The position numbers and the translations under genes were made by a program. A DNA stretch of 64,000 nucleotides from a virus: IMG/VR virus record IMGVR_UViG_3300009159_000067, positions 1-64,000 of that record, one strand, 5' to 3'. Numbering within the stretch: position 1 is the first letter of the stretch; each line of letters begins with the position of its first letter. The notes beneath the pieces were generated by a model that was not told the origin of the DNA, searched no databases, and saw only the letters and a list, made by a program, of their open reading frames with translations. Shown here piece by piece: positions 45,871 to 63,192 of this stretch.

Positions 45871-46587
45871 ATGGAAAAAACTTTTATTTATGGATTAGTA
45901 AGTAAAACAAATCCGAATGTTATTAGATATATTGGTAAAGCGGATGATCCTGAGAATAGAAAAAAAAGACATATACATAACACAAAGTATAATTCAAAAA
46001 TCAATAAAAAATTGACTCACAAAGATTATTGGATTATAAATGAAAATTATGAAATTGATTATGTTATTTTAGATGTATGTAATAAAAATGAATGGCAAGA
46101 AAAAGAAAAATATTATTTATCCAAATTTGATGATTTAACAAATACTTCTGAAGGAGGGATGGGAGGATCTGGTATTATATATTCAATGACTTATGATGAA
46201 ACTAAAAAATGGGTCAAATTAAATTTAAATACTGCTTCGAAAAGTAATTGGTATCAAAATATAAAAAATCTTCCTGATTTTATACCGTCAAATCCTAGAG
46301 AAGTTTATTTAAAAAAAGGGTGGATTAGTTGGGGTGATTTTTTGGGGACAAATAAGGTTTGGGATAATTTAGTCACTTATTTTCCATACGAAGAATCAAA
46401 AAAAATAATAAAAAAATTATTCATTAGTTCGGGTGCTGAATACAAAAAATTGGCCAAAGAAAAAAAAATACCAAATGGTGTTCCTAACAGACCTGAAAGA
46501 TACTACAAAAAAAGAGGATGGATTAGTTGGGGTGATTTCTTAGGGACAGGAAGAATAGCAAATCAATATAAAAAAAGGTCAGATTAA
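45871..46587 (+). CDS. GIY-YIG endonuclease-like protein with SWGDFLG repeats, 238 aa
   Basis: IYGLVSKTNPNVIRYIGKAD and NRKKRHIHNTKY give the GIY-YIG layout (a variant of the usual GIY…YIG…R). The C-terminal half has two copies of KGWISWGDFLGT / RGWISWGDFLGT, a DNA-associated repeat known from phage and integrase-like proteins. It looks like a free-standing homing endonuclease. It lies directly before clpP, convergent to it. Confidence 0.75.
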   Translation: MEKTFIYGLVSKTNPNVIRYIGKADDPENRKKRHIHNTKYNSKINKKLTHKDYWIINENYEIDYVILDVCNKNEWQEKEKYYLSKFDDLTNTSEGGMGGSGIIYSMTYDETKKWVKLNLNTASKSNWYQNIKNLPDFIPSNPREVYLKKGWISWGDFLGTNKVWDNLVTYFPYEESKKIIKKLFISSGAEYKKLAKEKKIPNGVPNRPERYYKKRGWISWGDFLGTGRIANQYKKRSD

Positions 46588-46604: not shown

Positions 46605-47276
46605 TTATTTCCTCTTTATGATAATTTCATCAATCAGTCCGTAATCTAAAGTTTCTTGAGATGAAAACCAAAGATCTCTATTGGCGTCAATTTTTATTTG
46701 ATCCGATGATTTTCCACAATATTCGCCAAGGAGATTAAATATTGTATCATTGATTTTTGTCCATTCCTCAAAGTTTACTTTCGCATCTGCATAAGTCCCT
46801 TGAAATCCTGACGATGATTGGTGTATCATTGTTCTCGAAAATTTTAAAGAACTTCGTTTTTCTTTTGTACCTGATCCTAAAAGAACTGCACCCATTGACG
46901 CACACATACCAACATTTATTGTTCTAACATCGCATTTAATATAATTGATAACATCAATCATACTCAATCCAGATTTAATACTTCCACCACCAGTATCTAA
47001 ATGTATTGTAATATCTGTTTTATCTGTATTATCTAAAAACATCAATTGAGCTTGAACTACGGTAGACATTCCATCATCTACCGGCCCTGCAGCCCATAAA
47101 ATTCTATCTCTGAGTAATCTTGAGAAAATATCCATTTGGGTTACCCTCATTTCTCTTTCTTCCAAAATATATGGAGTCATAGACGATTCAATTTGCTTAC
47201 CATAATAATCTAAATTAGAAGATGGTTTGCCCAAATGTTTAACAAAATAATTCTGAAAATCTTGTCCTACTGTCAT
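46605..47276 (-). CDS. clpP: ClpP-like protease, 223 aa
   Basis: Serine protease of the Clp degradation system. The catalytic triad is visible: Ser127 in MCASMGAVLLGSG, His152 in TMIHQSSSG and Asp201 in NRDLWFSSQE; TGGGSIKSG forms the oxyanion region. Length fits a full subunit with extra N-terminal residues. A strong host-type promoter precedes it. It probably works with the ClpC-like unfoldase at 61177, which keeps a ClpP-docking tripeptide. Confidence 0.95.
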   Translation of the reverse strand: MTVGQDFQNYFVKHLGKPSSNLDYYGKQIESSMTPYILEEREMRVTQMDIFSRLLRDRILWAAGPVDDGMSTVVQAQLMFLDNTDKTDITIHLDTGGGSIKSGLSMIDVINYIKCDVRTINVGMCASMGAVLLGSGTKEKRSSLKFSRTMIHQSSSGFQGTYADAKVNFEEWTKINDTIFNLLGEYCGKSSDQIKIDANRDLWFSSQETLDYGLIDEIIIKRK

Positions 47277-47291
47277 AATATATGTTTTTTA

Positions 47292-47323
47292 CAAAAGTAA
47301 TAAATCAATTTTTAATAAACAAA
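47292..47323 (-). promoter_or_regulatory. Bacteroidota-type promoter of clpP
   Basis: Minus strand TTTG (47323-47320), 20 bases, TACTTTTG (47299-47292), then TAAAAA. Confidence 0.65.
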
Positions 47324-47797
47324 AGAATTTTGAAAATCATTCCAAATATTTTGGATTGTTATGTTTTCATTGATCAATGTCGGAGCAAATGGAGTATGTC
47401 TCATTTTCATTTTTGCTTCTTCAGGAGTTCGATCTCTTTTTTTCAAATTACATTTAAAACAAGAAGTAACCAAATTCATCCAATTATTTTTTCCACCTTT
47501 TGATTTTGGAATAACATGATCTAATGTTAGATCCTTTTTTGATCCGCAATATATACATTCATGTCCATCTCGTTTGTAGATCCTATTACGGTTTGCACGA
47601 AGGGTTCTTGTATGATATTTGATATAGTTTAATAACCTTATGATTACAGGTCTTACATAGGTCTTAAAACCACATACAATAGGGTTCTCATCAGACTTAA
47701 CAATCTCGGCTTTACCTTTATCAACTAATATGAATCCCCGCCGATATGTAGTTACATTTAGGGGTGTATAATCAAAATTTAGAACTAATACTCCCAT
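47312..47797 (-). CDS. HNH endonuclease, 161 aa
   Basis: NRIYKRDGHECIYCGSKKDL, LDHVIPKSKGGKNNWMNLVT and CFKCNLKKRDRTPEEAKMKM give a complete HNH with two CxxC zinc pairs. The N-terminal part (VLNFDYTPLNVTTYRRGFIL) is the conserved extension of the McrA-like HNH family. A TATTTTTG element lies before the ATG. It may be host-attacking, packaging-related or a homing enzyme. Confidence 0.9.
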   Translation of the reverse strand: MGVLVLNFDYTPLNVTTYRRGFILVDKGKAEIVKSDENPIVCGFKTYVRPVIIRLLNYIKYHTRTLRANRNRIYKRDGHECIYCGSKKDLTLDHVIPKSKGGKNNWMNLVTSCFKCNLKKRDRTPEEAKMKMRHTPFAPTLINENITIQNIWNDFQNSFVY

Positions 47798-55827: not shown

Positions 55828-56052
55828 ATGGAGAAAAACAGATCGACATGGAGGTCAATTTTTCAAGACAACCTCTCACAAGTATTTTTAATGGTAGCTC
55901 TCTTCTTAAATCCATTTGGATTCGATGTAATTCAATATTCTCTAATATTATGGACAGGAAGTTTATGGAAAGCGAACTTCGTTTTGTATTGTTTTGCGGG
56001 AGTGTTCTTTGGATTGTATATCTACTTTCGCAGATTGTCTAAAAAAAATTAA
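55828..56052 (+). CDS. two-helix membrane protein, 74 aa
   Basis: MEKNRSTWRSIFQDNLSQVF, then hydrophobic FLMVALFLNPFGFDVIQYSL and FVLYCFAGVFFGLYIYFRRL. A frame offset by one (from 55821) also encodes 73 residues but is less protein-like. Overlaps the convergent KWC gene by four bases. Confidence 0.6.
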   Translation: MEKNRSTWRSIFQDNLSQVFLMVALFLNPFGFDVIQYSLILWTGSLWKANFVLYCFAGVFFGLYIYFRRLSKKN

Positions 56053-57560
56053 AGAGCTTTTAATTCACCTTTTTTAAAGGCATCAAAATTTGGTCCTTGA
56101 ACCAAAAGATATTTTCCTCCTGATTTTCTATAATTTAATATTCCTGCATTCTTTGCAGATGCAAAAAAACCGGCAAAATGACCCCTTAAATCACCTGAAG
56201 TTCTCCAACTGTGATTAGTGCCTTTAATTCTATATATAGGGTTATTATTATCATCATTTTTTCTTTCAAGTTTACCTATATCAACAAGAAAATCTAATTT
56301 GGTTCCAACAGTGTTATCATTATCTAACCAATCAACCAATTTTTTAATCAAACCTTTGTTTTTTCCAAATGTATATCCATAACTTATTCTATTTGGGTTC
56401 CAAACTTTAGTGGTTCCTGCAACTTTTTGAACAAGTTTTGGGTTGTTTTTAATGTGAAATAAAATTTTATTTACAATATTTCTTCTAACTCCAAAAGAGG
56501 TATAAGATGGATCTTCTTCAGTAAATCTATATATTTCATTTATATTCCAATCTTCTAAACCAAGATCCATAAAATAATCTACAGGAATATATTCTTCATT
56601 TCCTTGAAAACTTATTTCTACTTGAAATGATTTAAATGATTGAACTTCATTTTTTACTAGTTTATAATTTAAATAAATTATATATTCATCAATCAAATGG
56701 TCTGATATATATATTTTGACTTTCCCTTGAGAATGTCCAAACCCAAGATCTGTAATATTTTCAAAACCACTTACAATTACTTTTAAAGTTTGACCGGACT
56801 TTAAATAATTTCTTTCTTCGCTTTCATTTGTTCCAAAATTATTGAAGGTTTCAGTTAAAAACTTATCTACGTTAGATAAACTATTTTTTTTATTGTCTTC
56901 TATAATAGAATTTATAACTTCAGGAAATGCATATTTAAGGATTTTAATTTCTTTTTCTGTTAAAGATTTATCTTGAGAATCCCAATAAGTTATATCTCCT
57001 CTATTACTAAAATGAACCGCTACTTTGGAAAATTCTCGATCTGTTGAATTTTTTTTATCAATAATAAAATATAGCGCTTGATTTCCTTTAGTATATCTTT
57101 CGAAATGACCAGATCCTTTTTGTGTTACGCACCATTTTGTGTTGGAACCGTATTTACAAGAAGCTTCTTCAGTTTCTGGTTTTATAACTAAAAACTTATC
57201 ATCTTCGTAAATTTTGTTGGCTTGTTTTTCTAATTCTTTTTCTTTCTCTTTTTCTATGAAAGGTTTTAATGCGGTATCTAATTCAGTAAAACTATTGTAT
57301 TGATTAATGTCTTTCTTTTTTAATTGAGATTGGTATTTGTCAAAATCTTTTACTAAACCAACAGCAACATCAACCATCATATCAATATCTGAATGGATAT
57401 CTAAAGCCTTTAAAATAAAGTCAGTGTATTTGTGATTGAAATCTTGTAAATCAGAAATCCCTAAAACATCGTCTAACACTTCATCATCAAACTTGTCTGA
57501 ATACTTTTTCTTTAAATCTTCTTTTCTACCCTCCTTCAATAAAATGGACATAAATTTCAT
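56049..57560 (-). CDS. tagged KWC-motif protein, 503 aa (copy 2)
   Basis: MKFMSILLKEGRKEDLKKKY is an L-x-E-G type tag. Then YEDDKFLVIKPETEEASCKY and GSNTKWCVTQ (137-145), HFERYTKGNQALYFIIDKKN. The N-terminal 35 residues (…YSDKFDDEVLDDVLGI) align with 58427, so these are full paralogues in the first 180 residues. The C-terminal 300 are unrelated to it and beta-rich. TTATATTTATAACAT precedes the ATG. Confidence 0.75.
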   Translation of the reverse strand: MKFMSILLKEGRKEDLKKKYSDKFDDEVLDDVLGISDLQDFNHKYTDFILKALDIHSDIDMMVDVAVGLVKDFDKYQSQLKKKDINQYNSFTELDTALKPFIEKEKEKELEKQANKIYEDDKFLVIKPETEEASCKYGSNTKWCVTQKGSGHFERYTKGNQALYFIIDKKNSTDREFSKVAVHFSNRGDITYWDSQDKSLTEKEIKILKYAFPEVINSIIEDNKKNSLSNVDKFLTETFNNFGTNESEERNYLKSGQTLKVIVSGFENITDLGFGHSQGKVKIYISDHLIDEYIIYLNYKLVKNEVQSFKSFQVEISFQGNEEYIPVDYFMDLGLEDWNINEIYRFTEEDPSYTSFGVRRNIVNKILFHIKNNPKLVQKVAGTTKVWNPNRISYGYTFGKNKGLIKKLVDWLDNDNTVGTKLDFLVDIGKLERKNDDNNNPIYRIKGTNHSWRTSGDLRGHFAGFFASAKNAGILNYRKSGGKYLLVQGPNFDAFKKGELKAL

Positions 57561-57577
57561 ATGTTATAAATATAACA

Positions 57578-57925
57578 TCACTTCATAAGTAATTGAACCA
57601 ATAAAATTAAAAGTGCAAGAAAGATAGAGATAACGGTTTTTAGGGTAAATTCTTCTTTGAAGAGAATTACTGATAATAATGTGAATACAAAAACACCAAT
57701 TGCAAATCCAATCAATCGACTTGGCCATATTTCTCCTCCAAATCCTTGAACAAGAAAACTTACAGATTTAATAAATAACCAACTTGTTGGTATGCTAGTT
57801 AATAAAATAACCCACATGTATTTTCCATGCCAATTATATTTTATTCCACCTTGTAATTGCATAAAAGAACATAATTGACCAAGAAAGCCAAACAAAACAC
57901 CGTAAAAAATTTTAATAAGATCCAT
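57578..57925 (-). CDS. four-helix SMR/DMT-like membrane protein, 115 aa
   Basis: Start MDLIKIFYGVLFGFLGQLCS; four hydrophobic helices, with WPSRLIGFAIGVFVFTLLSV and TLKTVISIFLALLILLVQLL resembling small multidrug-resistance/DMT transporters. The open frame runs into the tmRNA 3' end and should not be extended. A TATATTTG element lies seven bases before the ATG. Confidence 0.7.
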   Translation of the reverse strand: MDLIKIFYGVLFGFLGQLCSFMQLQGGIKYNWHGKYMWVILLTSIPTSWLFIKSVSFLVQGFGGEIWPSRLIGFAIGVFVFTLLSVILFKEEFTLKTVISIFLALLILLVQLLMK

Positions 57926-57966
57926 TTGTCTCAAATATAGTAAAAATTTGAGACAAAAAAAGATAA

Positions 57967-58390
57967 TGGTGGAGGTGGCGGGAATCGAACCCGCGTCTTT
58001 CCTGTTCAACAATAAGTCACTACAAGTTTATTTTATTGGTTCTCAACAAACAAATAGAAAGTTCTTATTTTTCCATCAGAACTCACAACTGTGGTCGGTT
58101 CCTGTTAAATTGGATTGAACCGAAAACATCTCCCGACAAATTCTCTGAACTAAATCACGTGGTATTTGTCAAACCTCATGGACTTCTGTTCCAAGGTATA
58201 TGTCCTTACCGACCCGTAGTTGTTCTGTACGATTAAGCACCAACAACAGCTTCTTCTCTTGTTAAACCAAGAGCAGCAAGCTTAGCAAATGTATTGCCTG
58301 TTATTTTTACCACCGATGTTTAAAGTCGTAGATGACATCCGACTACTTGCGACCTATTCCTGATACCTGAAATCGAAACCTGTCACCCCC
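57967..58390 (-). ncRNA. ssrA: tmRNA with extended, atypical tag
   Basis: The 5' end GGGGGTGACAGGTTTCGA and 3' end CGGGTTCGATTCCCG, CACCTCCACCA form the tRNA-like half (acceptor GGGGGTG/CACCTCC, encoded CCA). The transcript is 424 nt and rescues stalled ribosomes. The reading frame runs from GGC at 58298 to TAA at 58235-58233: G-N-T-F-A-K-L-A-A, then 12 more residues ending E-E-A-V-V-G-A. A hairpin CTCTTG-GTTTAA-CAAGAG lies within the tag region. Bacteroidota tags typically start with Gly and end -ALAA, so this tag is long and ends unusually. Confidence 0.92.
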
Positions 58391-58426: not shown

Positions 58427-60274
58427 ATGGATATTTCAAACAAAATCTCTATTTATATAAAAACTGATATTTTGGCGTTAATACTTGAAGGAAAAAAAGA
58501 AGAAGTTGCAGAAAAGCTCAAACAAAAATTTGAGTATGACAATAGATTTATTGATTCTGTATTGGGTCTTGATCCTACAGGATACAAGTATATTGATTAT
58601 TTGGAAAAACAACTTGAAAAATGGATCCCTGAATTATCCGGTGACAAGGGGGGATTAAATTATTTACAAGGACAAACTCTTTATAATGTATTTGAAGATA
58701 TCATTCCTTGGTTTCACAATAGTTCAGGTCGTATTACTCCTGAATTTTTAAAACAAGCAAGAGATAGATACATTATTGCGATGGATAGGGATGTTGAAAA
58801 TTTTGATAAAATATTAAAATCGCCAAAAGATATTACAAATTATCATCCATTTTTTATTCAAACATTAAAAAATGTTGTAGAAGAAAATAAAAGTAATAAA
58901 GAAAAAGAAAAAAACGCCAAATCACAAGTTGAAAAATTATATGAGGATGACAAATATTTGATTTTAAAGCCAAAAACTTATGAAGCTTCGTGTTATTATG
59001 GTGCAGGAACTAAATGGTGTACCGCATCAAAAGATAATAAAGAACATTTTAGAAAATATTCAAGAGAAGGTGAATTGTATTATTTTATAGATAAAACTAA
59101 CAGTAATAAAATAGCTTTACACAAAGATGGGTCAGATAAAGAAATATTTGATATGTATGACCATAAAATAACTTCAGCTGTTTTATTAGACGACTTTCCA
59201 TTAGATATTACTGAAGAATTATTAGGAGGTGGATTGTTAAAAGTTCTTTTAGATTATGCAAAAGGAAATGCGCTTAGAAGTGATGTTTTATCTGCTGGAG
59301 AAATGATAAGAAATGTAATTCCTGATAAACCATTAGGTAAAAGTCAGGTGATTATTGATTTTGAATCAGATGAGGATTTTTTCTCTTTGATTGGTGTTGA
59401 TGAAGACGATTCTAATTTTGCTGGTTGGGTGACTTCAACAGGTAATAGTTGGGATTTTACGGATTCGTATCAAATTATGGAAGACTTTAAAGAGGGATAT
59501 AATGTTTATGGTGATATAGATGAAGAAAATATGGAAAAATTAAAACTTATTTCGACTTTGATAATGGGTGGAAAAAAATTTGATTTAACTGACGATAATT
59601 TTAAACAAGAATTATCAAAAAAACTTGTAGATCTATTTCCAAAGGAAATGGATCGCATAATAGGTGATTGGGAAACGGAATATAACTACATGATGAATCA
59701 ATCTGCTGATAAAAAAATTACAAAAGATGTAGAAGAATATTTGAATCGTTTTGGGTTTAGTGTTAGGTCCCAATTCCAATCTATTTCTACAACAGTAGGG
59801 AATTTAATAATGTGGTATGTTAGATTGAGTAAAGAAAAATTAGATTTGTATAGTTTAATGAAAAATATATTTGAAACTAATAAAAATACTATTGGGGGAT
59901 GGGTTGAAGATCAATATTCGTTTGAAGATTACGAATTTTTTGATAATACTTCTTTTAATAATGAAGTAACAAGACAATTTGATAATATTATTGAGAAAGT
60001 AGAAGACAATTCAGATAAAGCGGGACTTAGCATCAAAGATTTTATTGATATGGTAGAAAGAATCCAAAATAAATTCCCAACAACAAAAAATTGGACAAAG
60101 TTACCAAAAAATAAAAACTTTTCTTATAAAATTGAAGGGTTTGATCTTGATACAATGAAAATAATAGTTTTAGTGAATCATCCTGAAAAAGGAATAAAAA
60201 AGATAATGTTATCTGAACAAAACTTTTATAATCTATTATATCAGCCTGAATTATTTGAATTTGGAGAAATATAA
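58427..60274 (+). CDS. tagged KWC-motif protein, 615 aa (copy 3)
   Basis: The tag-like DILALILEGKKEEVAEKLKQ is followed by YEDDKYLILKPKTYEASCYY, GAGTKWCTAS (191-198) and HFRKYSREGELYYFIDKTNS. Aligned with 56049 over the first 180 residues. The C-terminal 400 residues are helical and end in a small beta domain (NKNFSYKIEGFDLDTMKIIV). It starts 37 bases beyond the tmRNA 5' end, divergently. Confidence 0.75.
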   Translation: MDISNKISIYIKTDILALILEGKKEEVAEKLKQKFEYDNRFIDSVLGLDPTGYKYIDYLEKQLEKWIPELSGDKGGLNYLQGQTLYNVFEDIIPWFHNSSGRITPEFLKQARDRYIIAMDRDVENFDKILKSPKDITNYHPFFIQTLKNVVEENKSNKEKEKNAKSQVEKLYEDDKYLILKPKTYEASCYYGAGTKWCTASKDNKEHFRKYSREGELYYFIDKTNSNKIALHKDGSDKEIFDMYDHKITSAVLLDDFPLDITEELLGGGLLKVLLDYAKGNALRSDVLSAGEMIRNVIPDKPLGKSQVIIDFESDEDFFSLIGVDEDDSNFAGWVTSTGNSWDFTDSYQIMEDFKEGYNVYGDIDEENMEKLKLISTLIMGGKKFDLTDDNFKQELSKKLVDLFPKEMDRIIGDWETEYNYMMNQSADKKITKDVEEYLNRFGFSVRSQFQSISTTVGNLIMWYVRLSKEKLDLYSLMKNIFETNKNTIGGWVEDQYSFEDYEFFDNTSFNNEVTRQFDNIIEKVEDNSDKAGLSIKDFIDMVERIQNKFPTTKNWTKLPKNKNFSYKIEGFDLDTMKIIVLVNHPEKGIKKIMLSEQNFYNLLYQPELFEFGEI

Positions 60275-60295: not shown

Positions 60296-61132
60296 ATGAC
60301 TCAAAATATAGACTTTCTTAAAGAAGTATTAAGTATACCTAGCAAGACATATAGAGAAGAACTTATGGTTCAATATCTTGTTAAATGGCTCACGGAAAAT
60401 AATATCGAACATTTTGTAGATGAACATAAAAATGTTTATGCTACTAAACAAGAATCTTCCGTAATTCCTGAAGATTTTTATTTTCCTTGTGTAGTATCCC
60501 ATACCGATACGGTACACGACATATGTAATATTAATATTGATGAAGAACAATTATATAACGCTCAAGGAGAATTAAAATTATCATTAAAGGCTTATGATAA
60601 TAGTGGAGATCCAACAGGAATTGGTGGAGACGATAAATGTGGAGTTTTTGCTTGTTTAACTTTACTCAAAGAACTTCCTTATTTGAAAGCGGCATTCTTT
60701 GTATCTGAAGAAACAGGATGTCACGGATCCAAAAAAGCTAAAGAAGAATTTTTTAAAAATGTTGGATATGCTATTCAGTTTGATGCACCTGAAAATTGGA
60801 TGATCACAGAAAAATGTTTTGGACAAGTTCTATTTGATAGGGATTCTGATTTCTTTCAAGCTTGTGATAAAGTTCTTACAGAAGGTATGATCAAAGAAGA
60901 TATGCAATATATGGTTCATCCATATACCGATGTATATGCGTTAAGAGGAAAATTTGATTTTTCTTGTATAAACTTCTCAATAGGATATTATGATTATCAT
61001 ACTCGGAATGAATATGTTGTTGTTGAGGATGTATTTAACGGAATTGAAATGGGTAGAAGAATGATTTCAGAATTAGGGCATAAATTACATTATAAAAAAT
61101 CCGTTGGTTATGAATGGAAAAGACCAATTTAA
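60296..61132 (+). CDS. M20-type metallopeptidase, 278 aa
   Basis: Zinc ligands are visible in order: VVSHTDTVHD (His69, Asp71), GIGGDDKCGV (Asp112), VSEETGCHGS (Glu138/139), QFDAPENW and YDYHTRNEYV. These match the M20 family of amino- or dipeptidases. It lacks a signal peptide, so it acts in the cytoplasm, probably trimming peptides made by ClpCP. Smaller than usual M20 enzymes (about 350-400 aa), with the dimerisation domain reduced. Confidence 0.85.
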   Translation: MTQNIDFLKEVLSIPSKTYREELMVQYLVKWLTENNIEHFVDEHKNVYATKQESSVIPEDFYFPCVVSHTDTVHDICNINIDEEQLYNAQGELKLSLKAYDNSGDPTGIGGDDKCGVFACLTLLKELPYLKAAFFVSEETGCHGSKKAKEEFFKNVGYAIQFDAPENWMITEKCFGQVLFDRDSDFFQACDKVLTEGMIKEDMQYMVHPYTDVYALRGKFDFSCINFSIGYYDYHTRNEYVVVEDVFNGIEMGRRMISELGHKLHYKKSVGYEWKRPI

Positions 61133-61142
61133 TAAAAAACAA

Positions 61143-61178
61143 TAAAAAAGGGAAGATTAAATCTTCCCTTTTTTATTT
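61143..61178. terminator. bidirectional terminator
   Basis: AAAAGGGAAGATT and AATCTTCCCTTTT arms between convergent M20 and clpC genes. Confidence 0.85.
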
Positions 61179-63192
61179 ATCTACCCTTTTTAACCACTTT
61201 AATTTCATCACCATCAACTTTTATGTTGTAGGTTTTACCTTCAACCATCTTGCCAGTTAACACTTCTTCAGATAGAAGATCTTCAATCTTATCTTGAATT
61301 GCTCTTTTCAATGGACGAGCTCCATACAATTCATCAAACCCAACTTTTGCCAAATAATCTACCAATGTTTCATCATAGGTAATTTTGTATTTCATTTCAC
61401 CAAGACGAGATACCAACTTTTTCAGTTCTATATCAGTAATTTTCTTGATGTCTTCAGAACTCAACGAATTAAATACAATTGTATCATCAATACGATTTAA
61501 GAATTCGGGTGAGAAGAAATTTTTCATTTCTTTCATCAGGATTTGTTTCTTAGCTTCTTCATTTCCATAAGTGTTACTTGAGAAACCAATACCTGTTCCG
61601 AAGTCTTGTATCTTTTTAACCCCTAAATTAGAGGTTAAGATGATCAATGTGTTCTTAAAATTGATCTTGCGACCCAAACTATCAGTAACATGCCCATCAT
61701 CCAAGATTTGAAGAAGAATAGTGAAAACATCTTTATGAGCTTTTTCAACTTCATCAAATAGAATTACAGAATATGGTTTGTTTTTAACTTTCTCGGTTAA
61801 CATTCCACCTTCTTCATATCCAACATAACCTGGAGGTGCACCTACTAATTTGGATATTGTATGTTTTTCTTGATATTCACTCATATCCACGCGGATAAGT
61901 GAATCTTCACTACCAAACATTTCTTTTGCTATTTGTTTTGCCAAATAGGTCTTACCGACACCTGTTGATCCAAGGAACACAAATGATCCTATTGGACGAT
62001 TTGGATCTTTAATACCTAATCTATTTCTACGAACTGCTTTTGCAATTTTGATAACTGCTTCATTCTGACCAATAACCTTATCCATAAGAGATTTATCAAG
62101 ATCCAAAAGAGCTTTGGAATCATCAACACTCATTTTACTTACAGGAATTTTAGTCATATTTGAGACAACATCATAAACATCCTCAATAGATATTTTTTGT
62201 TTGTCTTTGGTCATTTGTTCTTCAAACTTTGCCTTTTCTTGTTCAAGTTTGTTTAAAAGTTTCTTTTCTTTATCTCTTAACTCTGCTGCCTGCTCATAGT
62301 TTTGTTTTTTTACAACATCAATCTTGAGTTGTTTGAGTTCAGCCGCTTTTCTTTTTAATTCTTCAATTGTTGGTGGTACTTTTAATTCTGTTTGCATCCT
62401 TGCACCTACTTCATCAAGAATATCAAATGCCTTATCGGGGAATTCACGATCTGTGATGTATCTATCGGCAAGTTTAACACAAGCATCAATAACTTCATCA
62501 GAATAAGACACCTTATGAAAACTTTCATATTTGTCCCTCACATTTTTCAATATTTGAATTGTTTCATATACTGATGAAGGTTCAACTATTACTTTTTGAA
62601 ATCTTCTTTCCAAAGCGCCATCTTTTTCAATATTTTTTCTGAATTCATCAAGTGTTGTTGCTCCGATACATTGAAGTTCTCCACGAGAAAGTGCAGGTTT
62701 AAATATGTTTGAACCATCCATAGAACCTGCAGAATTACCGGATCCAACTAAAGTATGGATTTCATCAATAAAGATAATAATATCAGGATTTGCTTGAAGT
62801 TCTTCAATTATTACTTTCATTCTTTCCTCAAATTGTCCACGATATTTTGTACCAGCAACAACTGAAGTTAGATCAAGATTTACAATTCTTTTATCAATCA
62901 AATTTCTTGGACATTCTCCACTTACAATTTTCATTGCTAAACCCTCAATGATTGCAGTTTTACCACAACCCGGTTCACCGATGATAATTGGATTATTCTT
63001 TTTTCTGCGAGATAAAATCTGTGCGATTCTTAAAATCTCACGATCTCTACCAATAACAGGGTCAAGTTTACCTTGTTCTGCTAACTTATTTAAGTCTCTG
63101 CCAAAATTATCCAATACGGGTGTGGTACTGTCTGAATTTTGCTTTTGTTTTTTGTTGGTTGTTTTTTCGTCGTCGTCCATTAGTTCATTCAT
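61177..63192 (-). CDS. clpC: ClpC-like AAA+ unfoldase without N-domain, 671 aa
   Basis: Two AAA+ modules. Walker A motifs are GEPGCGKT (72-79) and GSTGVGKT (about 425); Walker B are FIDEIHTL and LFDEVEKAH. A UVR-like middle (KKQNYEQAAELRDKEK) as in ClpC links them, and the ClpB coiled coil is absent. FGTGIGF near residue 570 occupies the ClpP-docking loop position. The usual N-terminal adaptor domain is missing: only about 25 disordered residues precede the first module. Probably partners ClpP (46605). Confidence 0.93.
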   Translation of the reverse strand: MNELMDDDEKTTNKKQKQNSDSTTPVLDNFGRDLNKLAEQGKLDPVIGRDREILRIAQILSRRKKNNPIIIGEPGCGKTAIIEGLAMKIVSGECPRNLIDKRIVNLDLTSVVAGTKYRGQFEERMKVIIEELQANPDIIIFIDEIHTLVGSGNSAGSMDGSNIFKPALSRGELQCIGATTLDEFRKNIEKDGALERRFQKVIVEPSSVYETIQILKNVRDKYESFHKVSYSDEVIDACVKLADRYITDREFPDKAFDILDEVGARMQTELKVPPTIEELKRKAAELKQLKIDVVKKQNYEQAAELRDKEKKLLNKLEQEKAKFEEQMTKDKQKISIEDVYDVVSNMTKIPVSKMSVDDSKALLDLDKSLMDKVIGQNEAVIKIAKAVRRNRLGIKDPNRPIGSFVFLGSTGVGKTYLAKQIAKEMFGSEDSLIRVDMSEYQEKHTISKLVGAPPGYVGYEEGGMLTEKVKNKPYSVILFDEVEKAHKDVFTILLQILDDGHVTDSLGRKINFKNTLIILTSNLGVKKIQDFGTGIGFSSNTYGNEEAKKQILMKEMKNFFSPEFLNRIDDTIVFNSLSSEDIKKITDIELKKLVSRLGEMKYKITYDETLVDYLAKVGFDELYGARPLKRAIQDKIEDLLSEEVLTGKMVEGKTYNIKVDGDEIKVVKKGR

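What the first reader, a model, noticed from the sequence alone, without database searches (positions are those of the whole stretch)
57967..58390. Phage tmRNA whose tag appears to extend past an internal L-A-A
The tRNA-like ends are unmistakable. The frame from GGC reads G-N-T-F-A-K-L-A-A, close in length and form to the Gly-starting, -LAA-ending tags of Bacteroidota, but then continues 12 residues to E-E-A-V-V-G-A before TAA. If correct, the classical C-terminal degron is buried and rescued proteins would escape host ClpXP or be directed to another protease. A different resume codon (GCA at +1) would give an 11-residue hydrophobic tag with its stop in the hairpin loop.
Basis: partly seen in the sequence, partly recalled or inferred. 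Interest (0 to 1): 0.85.

Follow-up and report, generated by a model that had tools for sequence, protein, structure and literature searches.

The report
Phage tmRNA with re-coded degradation tag
This virus of bacteria carries its own ribosome-rescue RNA (tmRNA) that would add an unusual 21-residue tag, conserved across related aquatic phages and not found in sequenced bacteria, and it also carries its own Clp unfolding machine and Clp protease, so it probably brings a private tag-and-destroy system into the infected cell.

Summary
The tmRNA is real (ARAGORN; Rfam RF00023, 95.6 bits, full length), and its tag is the 21-codon frame GNTFAKLAALGLTREEAVVGA. The same frame, 20-22 codons long, is kept in 66 distinct tmRNAs from related IMG/VR phages. 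All 66 have the alanine-identity G3·U70 pair, and all have the frame-setting A at -4. Frame 0 is never interrupted (dN/dS about 0.46); the other frames are stopped in 41/50 and 49/50. The +1 alternative is rejected. The internal L-A-A is not a conserved, buried degron: only 4 of 43 distinct tags have it. No tag ends in -LAA; ends are VVAA, VVGA, VVEA, VVKA, VVTI, VAVA. The tag motif was found in 0 of 84,980 bacterial/archaeal genomes and in 60 viral contigs. Every phage ClpC locus holding enough downstream DNA (68 of 68) has this tmRNA on the same strand, 2.1-5.6 kb downstream. The phages, this window included, often also encode ClpP. ClpC lacks the N-domain but has the IGF ClpP-docking loop; ClpP keeps its catalytic triad. 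Only 1 of 36 records has SmpB. Best reading: a phage-borne, re-specified trans-translation/ClpCP module that borrows host SmpB. Recognition of the tag by ClpCP is inferred, not shown.

The parts
57967..58390 (-). tmRNA gene (ssrA), one-piece, CCA encoded
   Evidence: ARAGORN; RF00023 95.6 bits, model 1-374; 66 unique relatives with covarying acceptor stem and invariant G3-U70
58233..58298 (-). tag reading frame GGC...GCT TAA, GNTFAKLAALGLTREEAVVGA*
   Evidence: frame conserved in relatives, 20-22 codons; dN/dS about 0.46 against 0.74 and 1.19 in the other frames
58302..58302 (-). A at -4 of the resume codon, equivalent of E. coli A86 that sets the frame
   Evidence: A at -4 in every upstream heptamer listed; role of A86 from PMC2481249
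   Evidence: six pairs hold fully in 9 of 20 relatives and only partly in the rest; absent from the RNAalifold consensus
61177..63192 (-). ClpC-type two-AAA unfoldase without N-domain, 671 aa, with IGF loop
   Evidence: phrog_4871 E=1.5e-244; Pfam AAA, AAA_lid_9, AAA_2, ClpB_D2-small; S. aureus ClpC 147-802 E=5e-229; motifs
46605..47276 (-). ClpP peptidase, 223 aa, catalytic triad intact
   Evidence: PF00574 E=4e-54; ClpP structures E=3e-46; S97/H122/D171 kept
60296..61132 (+). M20-like peptidase between ClpC and tmRNA; conserved neighbour, part of the module uncertain
   Evidence: phrog_4191 peptidase E=1.9e-33; Peptidase_M20 below its cut-off; homologues at about 80% identity in many ClpC loci

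Best explanation
A functional phage tmRNA whose tag has been re-specified. Step 1 (shown by sequence and covariation): the RNA has the parts needed to be charged with alanine and to enter stalled ribosomes. Step 2 (inferred): it works with host SmpB, since none was found in this record. Step 3 (shown by comparative evidence): translation resumes at GGC and would add a 21-residue tag, after the tRNA-borne Ala, of a family found only in these phages. Step 4 (inferred, most likely): the tag is not meant mainly for host ClpXP; it is a degron for the phage's own ClpC-ClpP protease, whose unfoldase gene sits in fixed association with the tmRNA. During infection stalled ribosomes would be freed and the unfinished products sent to a phage-controlled protease.
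For: tmRNA anatomy: RF00023 full length, 35 of 47 pairs with compensatory changes, G3-U70 in 66/66 and A at -4. Tag: same frame everywhere, purifying selection, other frames broken. Phage-specific tag: 0 hits in 84,980 cellular genomes, 60 in IMG/VR. Linkage: 68 of 68 ClpC loci with enough downstream DNA have the tmRNA on the same strand 2.1-5.6 kb downstream, loci fetched by ClpC alone; conversely 44 of 48 tmRNA-bearing records hold the ClpC. ClpP in 24 of 36 and 13 of 32 records, many of them fragments. ClpC has an IGF or VGF loop in 88 of 92 and intact Walker and pore motifs; ClpP triad intact. Tags end VVEA, VVKA or VVTI in several phages, unlike the terminal Ala-Ala that E. coli ClpXP relies on (PMC7652416). 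Precedent for a tag switched to another protease: mycoplasma ssrA and Lon (PMC8138137).
Against: No expression or degradation data. Recognition of the tag by phage ClpC is not tested. Twelve of 43 tags end VVAA, which host ClpXP might still accept. Huge phages LR756502 and LR745206 have ClpC and ClpP with no tmRNA found, so the protease does not need it. Tag and ClpC co-diverge (partial correlation 0.29) but no more than the rest of the tmRNA does (0.31). ClpP is missing from several records above 100 kb.
Confidence: 0.6

Rival explanations
1. Rescue without destruction: the tag is a neutral or stabilising tail, so the phage frees ribosomes while sparing its products from host ClpXP; phage ClpC-ClpP next door serves another purpose, such as removing host proteins.
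For: Several tags end in residues that should weaken ClpXP binding (VVEA, VVKA, VVTI, PMC7652416). Phage ClpC and ClpP occur in other phages with no tmRNA found.
Against: A neutral tail should drift, yet K6, G11, L12, E15, V19 and A21 are almost fixed and the frame is under purifying selection. The strict linkage to ClpC would be left unexplained.
Confidence: 0.2
2. Ordinary supplementary tmRNA: it boosts the host's own trans-translation, and host ClpXP, Lon or another host protease degrades the tagged products; the tag merely differs in sequence.
For: Phage tmRNAs are common enough to be ordinary (402 of 18,146 phages, PMC9004378). Twelve of 43 tags end VVAA.
Against: The tag motif is absent from 84,980 cellular genomes, 16 of 43 tags lack a small residue-Ala end of the VAA or VGA type, and the linkage to a phage ClpC is without exception in loci long enough to test.
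Confidence: 0.17
3. One reading: translation resumes at GCA in the +1 frame, giving the 11-residue hydrophobic tag AIHLLSLLLLV with its stop in the hairpin loop.
For: In the window the UAA does lie in the loop of a small hairpin, the usual place of tmRNA tag stops in the Rfam model.
Against: The A at -4 marks GGC. The +1 stop position is not conserved and the +1 frame is less constrained (0.74 against 0.46). The hairpin is only partly conserved.
Confidence: 0.02
4. Decaying or host-derived tmRNA fragment without function.
For: None found beyond the lack of expression data.
Against: Full-length structure with compensatory changes across 66 unique sequences, invariant G3-U70, conserved frame.
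Confidence: 0.01

Closest known systems
Bacterial one-piece tmRNA (ssrA, Rfam RF00023)
   Same: tRNA-like domain with G3-U70, A at -4 of the resume codon, internal tag frame with stop, Gly resume codon as in Bacteroidota tags (recalled)
   Different: 20-22-residue tag of a family not found in cells; no -LAA end; stop not in a conserved hairpin loop
Mycoplasma / Mesoplasma florum ssrA tag with Lon (Gur and Sauer 2008, via PMC8138137)
   Same: longer, diverged tag; natural switch of the tag to a different protease
   Different: there the partner is cellular Lon in cells lacking ClpXP; here a phage N-domain-less ClpC with phage ClpP, and the partnership is inferred
tmRNAs of cultured phages (mycobacteriophages, Bacillus phage G, Melnitz; PMC4131195, PMC9004378)
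   Same: phage-borne tmRNA; some tags differ from the host's, e.g. AADVAADYAAVGA in Mycobacterium phage GenevaB15
   Different: no linkage with phage ClpC and ClpP described in the passages read
Huge phages with tmRNA and SmpB (Al-Shayeb et al. 2020, PMC7162821)
   Same: large phages with tmRNA and sometimes SmpB; one relative here (309 kb) has tmRNA, SmpB, ClpC and ClpP
   Different: the passages found there mention no conserved re-coded tag and no Clp linkage
Bacterial ClpC-ClpP protease
   Same: two AAA modules, Walker and pore motifs, IGF loop, ClpP triad
   Different: phage ClpC lacks the N-terminal domain that binds adaptors in the bacterial enzyme

Membership tests
tmRNA (RF00023) | full-length match to the covariance model above the curated cut-off | tested here: met
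   95.6 bits against 47, positions 1-374
tmRNA (RF00023) | alanine-identity G3-U70 in the acceptor stem | tested here: met
   66 of 66 unique relatives, window included
tmRNA (RF00023) | conserved A four nucleotides before the resume codon | tested here: met
   A at -4 in every upstream heptamer listed; A86 role from PMC2481249
tmRNA (RF00023) | tag reading frame under protein-level selection | tested here: met
   dN/dS about 0.46, no interruption in 50 distinct tag DNAs
tmRNA (RF00023) | tag ending -LAA or similar ClpXP degron | tested here: not met
   no tag of 43 ends LAA; 14 end VAA. Not a defining feature of tmRNA as an RNA
tmRNA (RF00023) | charging with alanine, SmpB binding, tagging in cells | not testable with these tools
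   needs experiment
ClpC unfoldase | two AAA modules with Walker A/B, pore loops, D2-small domain | tested here: met
ClpC unfoldase | IGF/VGF/IGL loop for ClpP docking | tested here: met
   IGF 85, VGF 3 of 92 sequences; window has IGF
ClpC unfoldase | N-terminal Clp_N domain | tested here: not met
   match starts at residue 147 of S. aureus ClpC; no Clp_N in Pfam scan. Hence ClpC-like, not a complete ClpC
ClpP peptidase | Ser-His-Asp triad and end-to-end ClpP match | tested here: met
Orthogonal tag-protease pair (as in mycoplasma ssrA/Lon) | specific degradation of the tag by the partner protease | not testable with these tools
   only linkage and motif evidence

The most novel reading that the evidence does not exclude
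A large clade of aquatic phages carries a self-contained, orthogonal trans-translation and proteolysis module: a tmRNA whose tag is a degron private to a phage N-domain-less ClpC working with a phage ClpP, so that products of stalled ribosomes pass from host to viral quality control.
Probability: 0.5. Interest if true: 0.82.

Novelty: new variant of a known kind. Interest (0 to 1): 0.7.

Why it matters
Why phages carry tmRNA is an open question; proposals include ribosome rescue, sensing the host and tagging host proteins. Here a tag family absent from sequenced cells is tied, without exception in the loci long enough to test, to a phage unfoldase gene, and often to a phage ClpP. That makes the question directly testable. 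It would add a second natural case, after mycoplasmas, of a tmRNA tag re-specified for another protease, and would supply a natural orthogonal degron-protease pair.

Tried and rejected
The +1 frame. A buried ancestral LAA degron as the key feature. A tag copied from a sequenced host: no match in genome contigs by pseudoknot-region pattern or by tag pattern. ClpP as a prohead protease: it matches true ClpP end to end, and the neighbours looked at resemble homing endonucleases and not capsid genes, but this was not tested further. Tag-specific co-evolution with ClpC: the correlation is present but equal for the rest of the tmRNA. A paper search for Bacteroidota tag strings found nothing, so the Bacteroidota resemblance rests on memory. 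A tblastn of the 21-residue tag in phage records found nothing, with little power for so short a query. Three genome-search runs failed on size limits and were rerun smaller. ARAGORN reports short false tags (AEEATVVA) for some relatives because it picks an inner codon; these lie in the same frame. Rfam missed the tmRNA in the 326-kb record G002 that a profile of this family finds (L032).

Full report
ARAGORN and Rfam both place a full-length tmRNA at 57967-58390 on the minus strand. The window is part of a 66.9-kb IMG/VR virus fragment at 29% G+C, with almost no Shine-Dalgarno sites (3 of 56 starts) and A-rich leaders, which suggests but does not prove a Bacteroidota host.

Frame. Relatives were gathered in independent ways: through the nearby ClpC gene, through a DNA pattern in the tmRNA 3' of the tag, and through the tag itself. 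The set gives 66 unique full-length tmRNAs. Acceptor stems change in compensated fashion while pair 3 stays G-U in all 66. The nucleotide four before the resume codon is A in every heptamer listed; in E. coli the equivalent A86 fixes the frame (PMC2481249). The frame starting at GGC (rarely GAC, GGA) is uninterrupted for 20-22 codons in all relatives read. Among 50 distinct 21-codon tag DNAs, dN/dS is about 0.46 in frame 0, and 0.74 and 1.19 in the other frames, which are stopped in 41/50 and 49/50; third positions are the most variable (16 of 10,000 permutations reach the observed excess). These pairwise figures ignore phylogeny and RNA constraints. The +1 reading is therefore rejected; its in-loop stop is a by-product of the codons GGT-TTA-ACA in a hairpin that is only partly conserved.

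Tag. There are 43 distinct tags assigned by script in the full-length set. In the 40 of exactly 21 residues K6 and G11 are invariant, and L12, E15, V19 and A21 nearly so. Residues 7-9 read LAA in only 4 of 43. Ends are VVAA (12), VVGA (8), VVEA, VVTA, VVKA, PVVA and VAVA (3 each), VVTI (2) and a few others. E. coli ClpXP depends most on the terminal Ala-Ala (PMC7652416), so many of these should be poor ClpX substrates; that is inference. The tag motif occurs in none of 84,980 cellular species genomes and in 60 viral contigs.

Module. The gene at 61177-63192 is a ClpC lacking the N-domain, with intact nucleotide-binding and pore motifs and an IGF loop, the ClpP-docking element. ClpP lies at 46605-47276 with its catalytic triad. 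Of 80 loci fetched by ClpC alone, 68 have the tmRNA on the same strand 2.1-5.6 kb downstream (median 2.7 kb); the other 12 hold too little downstream DNA, and none with at least 6 kb lacks it. In some more distant tmRNA-bearing records the gap reaches about 14.5 kb. The ClpC was found in 44 of 48 records chosen for the tmRNA. ClpP is in 24 of 36 and 13 of 32 records, many of them fragments. SmpB is in 1 of 36, so host SmpB is presumably used. An M20-like peptidase between ClpC and tmRNA is also conserved.

Mechanism. Shown: tmRNA anatomy, frame, tag conservation, linkage, motif integrity. Inferred: charging, use of host SmpB, recognition of the tag by phage ClpC-ClpP. The loss of the ClpC N-domain, where adaptors dock in bacterial ClpC (established knowledge), would fit direct recognition of a dedicated tag. 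Against: no functional data; ClpC and ClpP exist in other huge phages with no tmRNA found; tag-ClpC co-divergence is no stronger than that of the tmRNA body.

Comparison. The RNA is a tmRNA by every feature tested. The closest precedent for the proposed way of working is the mycoplasma tag switch to Lon (PMC8138137). Phage tmRNAs as such are known (PMC4131195, PMC9004378, PMC7162821), and so are phage tags that differ from the host's (PMC9569102). I did not find this tag family or its Clp linkage described in the papers searched, but that library is limited.

Noticed in passing
window 56049-57560 (-) and 58427-60274 (+): Two proteins flanking the tmRNA share a motif YG[AS].TKWC and match phrog_17056 (unknown function); both have homologues in most related loci.
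   Followed up: partly
window 60296-61132 (+): M20-like peptidase between ClpC and tmRNA, about 80% identical in many relatives; perhaps finishes peptides released by ClpP.
   Followed up: partly
L043 contig (G003:23555-23968): A 309-kb relative encodes SmpB as well as tmRNA, ClpC and ClpP, a complete set.
   Followed up: no
window tmRNA 3' half; L016, L078: The pseudoknot region 3' of the tag exists in clearly different versions; the window shares a longer one with L016 and L078, which suggests exchange of tmRNA segments between phages.
   Followed up: no
66 unique tmRNAs: The 3' CCA is encoded in 52 of 66 and must be added in the rest.
   Followed up: no
L152 contig (G028:43544-47313): ClpC is split in two pieces with about 1.8 kb between them, perhaps by an intron or an inserted gene.
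   Followed up: no
L197 (LR756508.1, 414804-414915): A 112-nt match to both ends of the tmRNA model in a 484-kb phage that also has a full-length tmRNA; possibly a tRNA-like domain alone.
   Followed up: no
window 45871-46587 (+) and 47312-47797 (-): A GIY-YIG-like and an HNH-like protein on either side of ClpP, judged from sequence only.
   Followed up: no
window 57578-58012 (-): ORF running out of the tmRNA 3' end; its likely true start is the ATG at about 57925, a small membrane protein.
   Followed up: no
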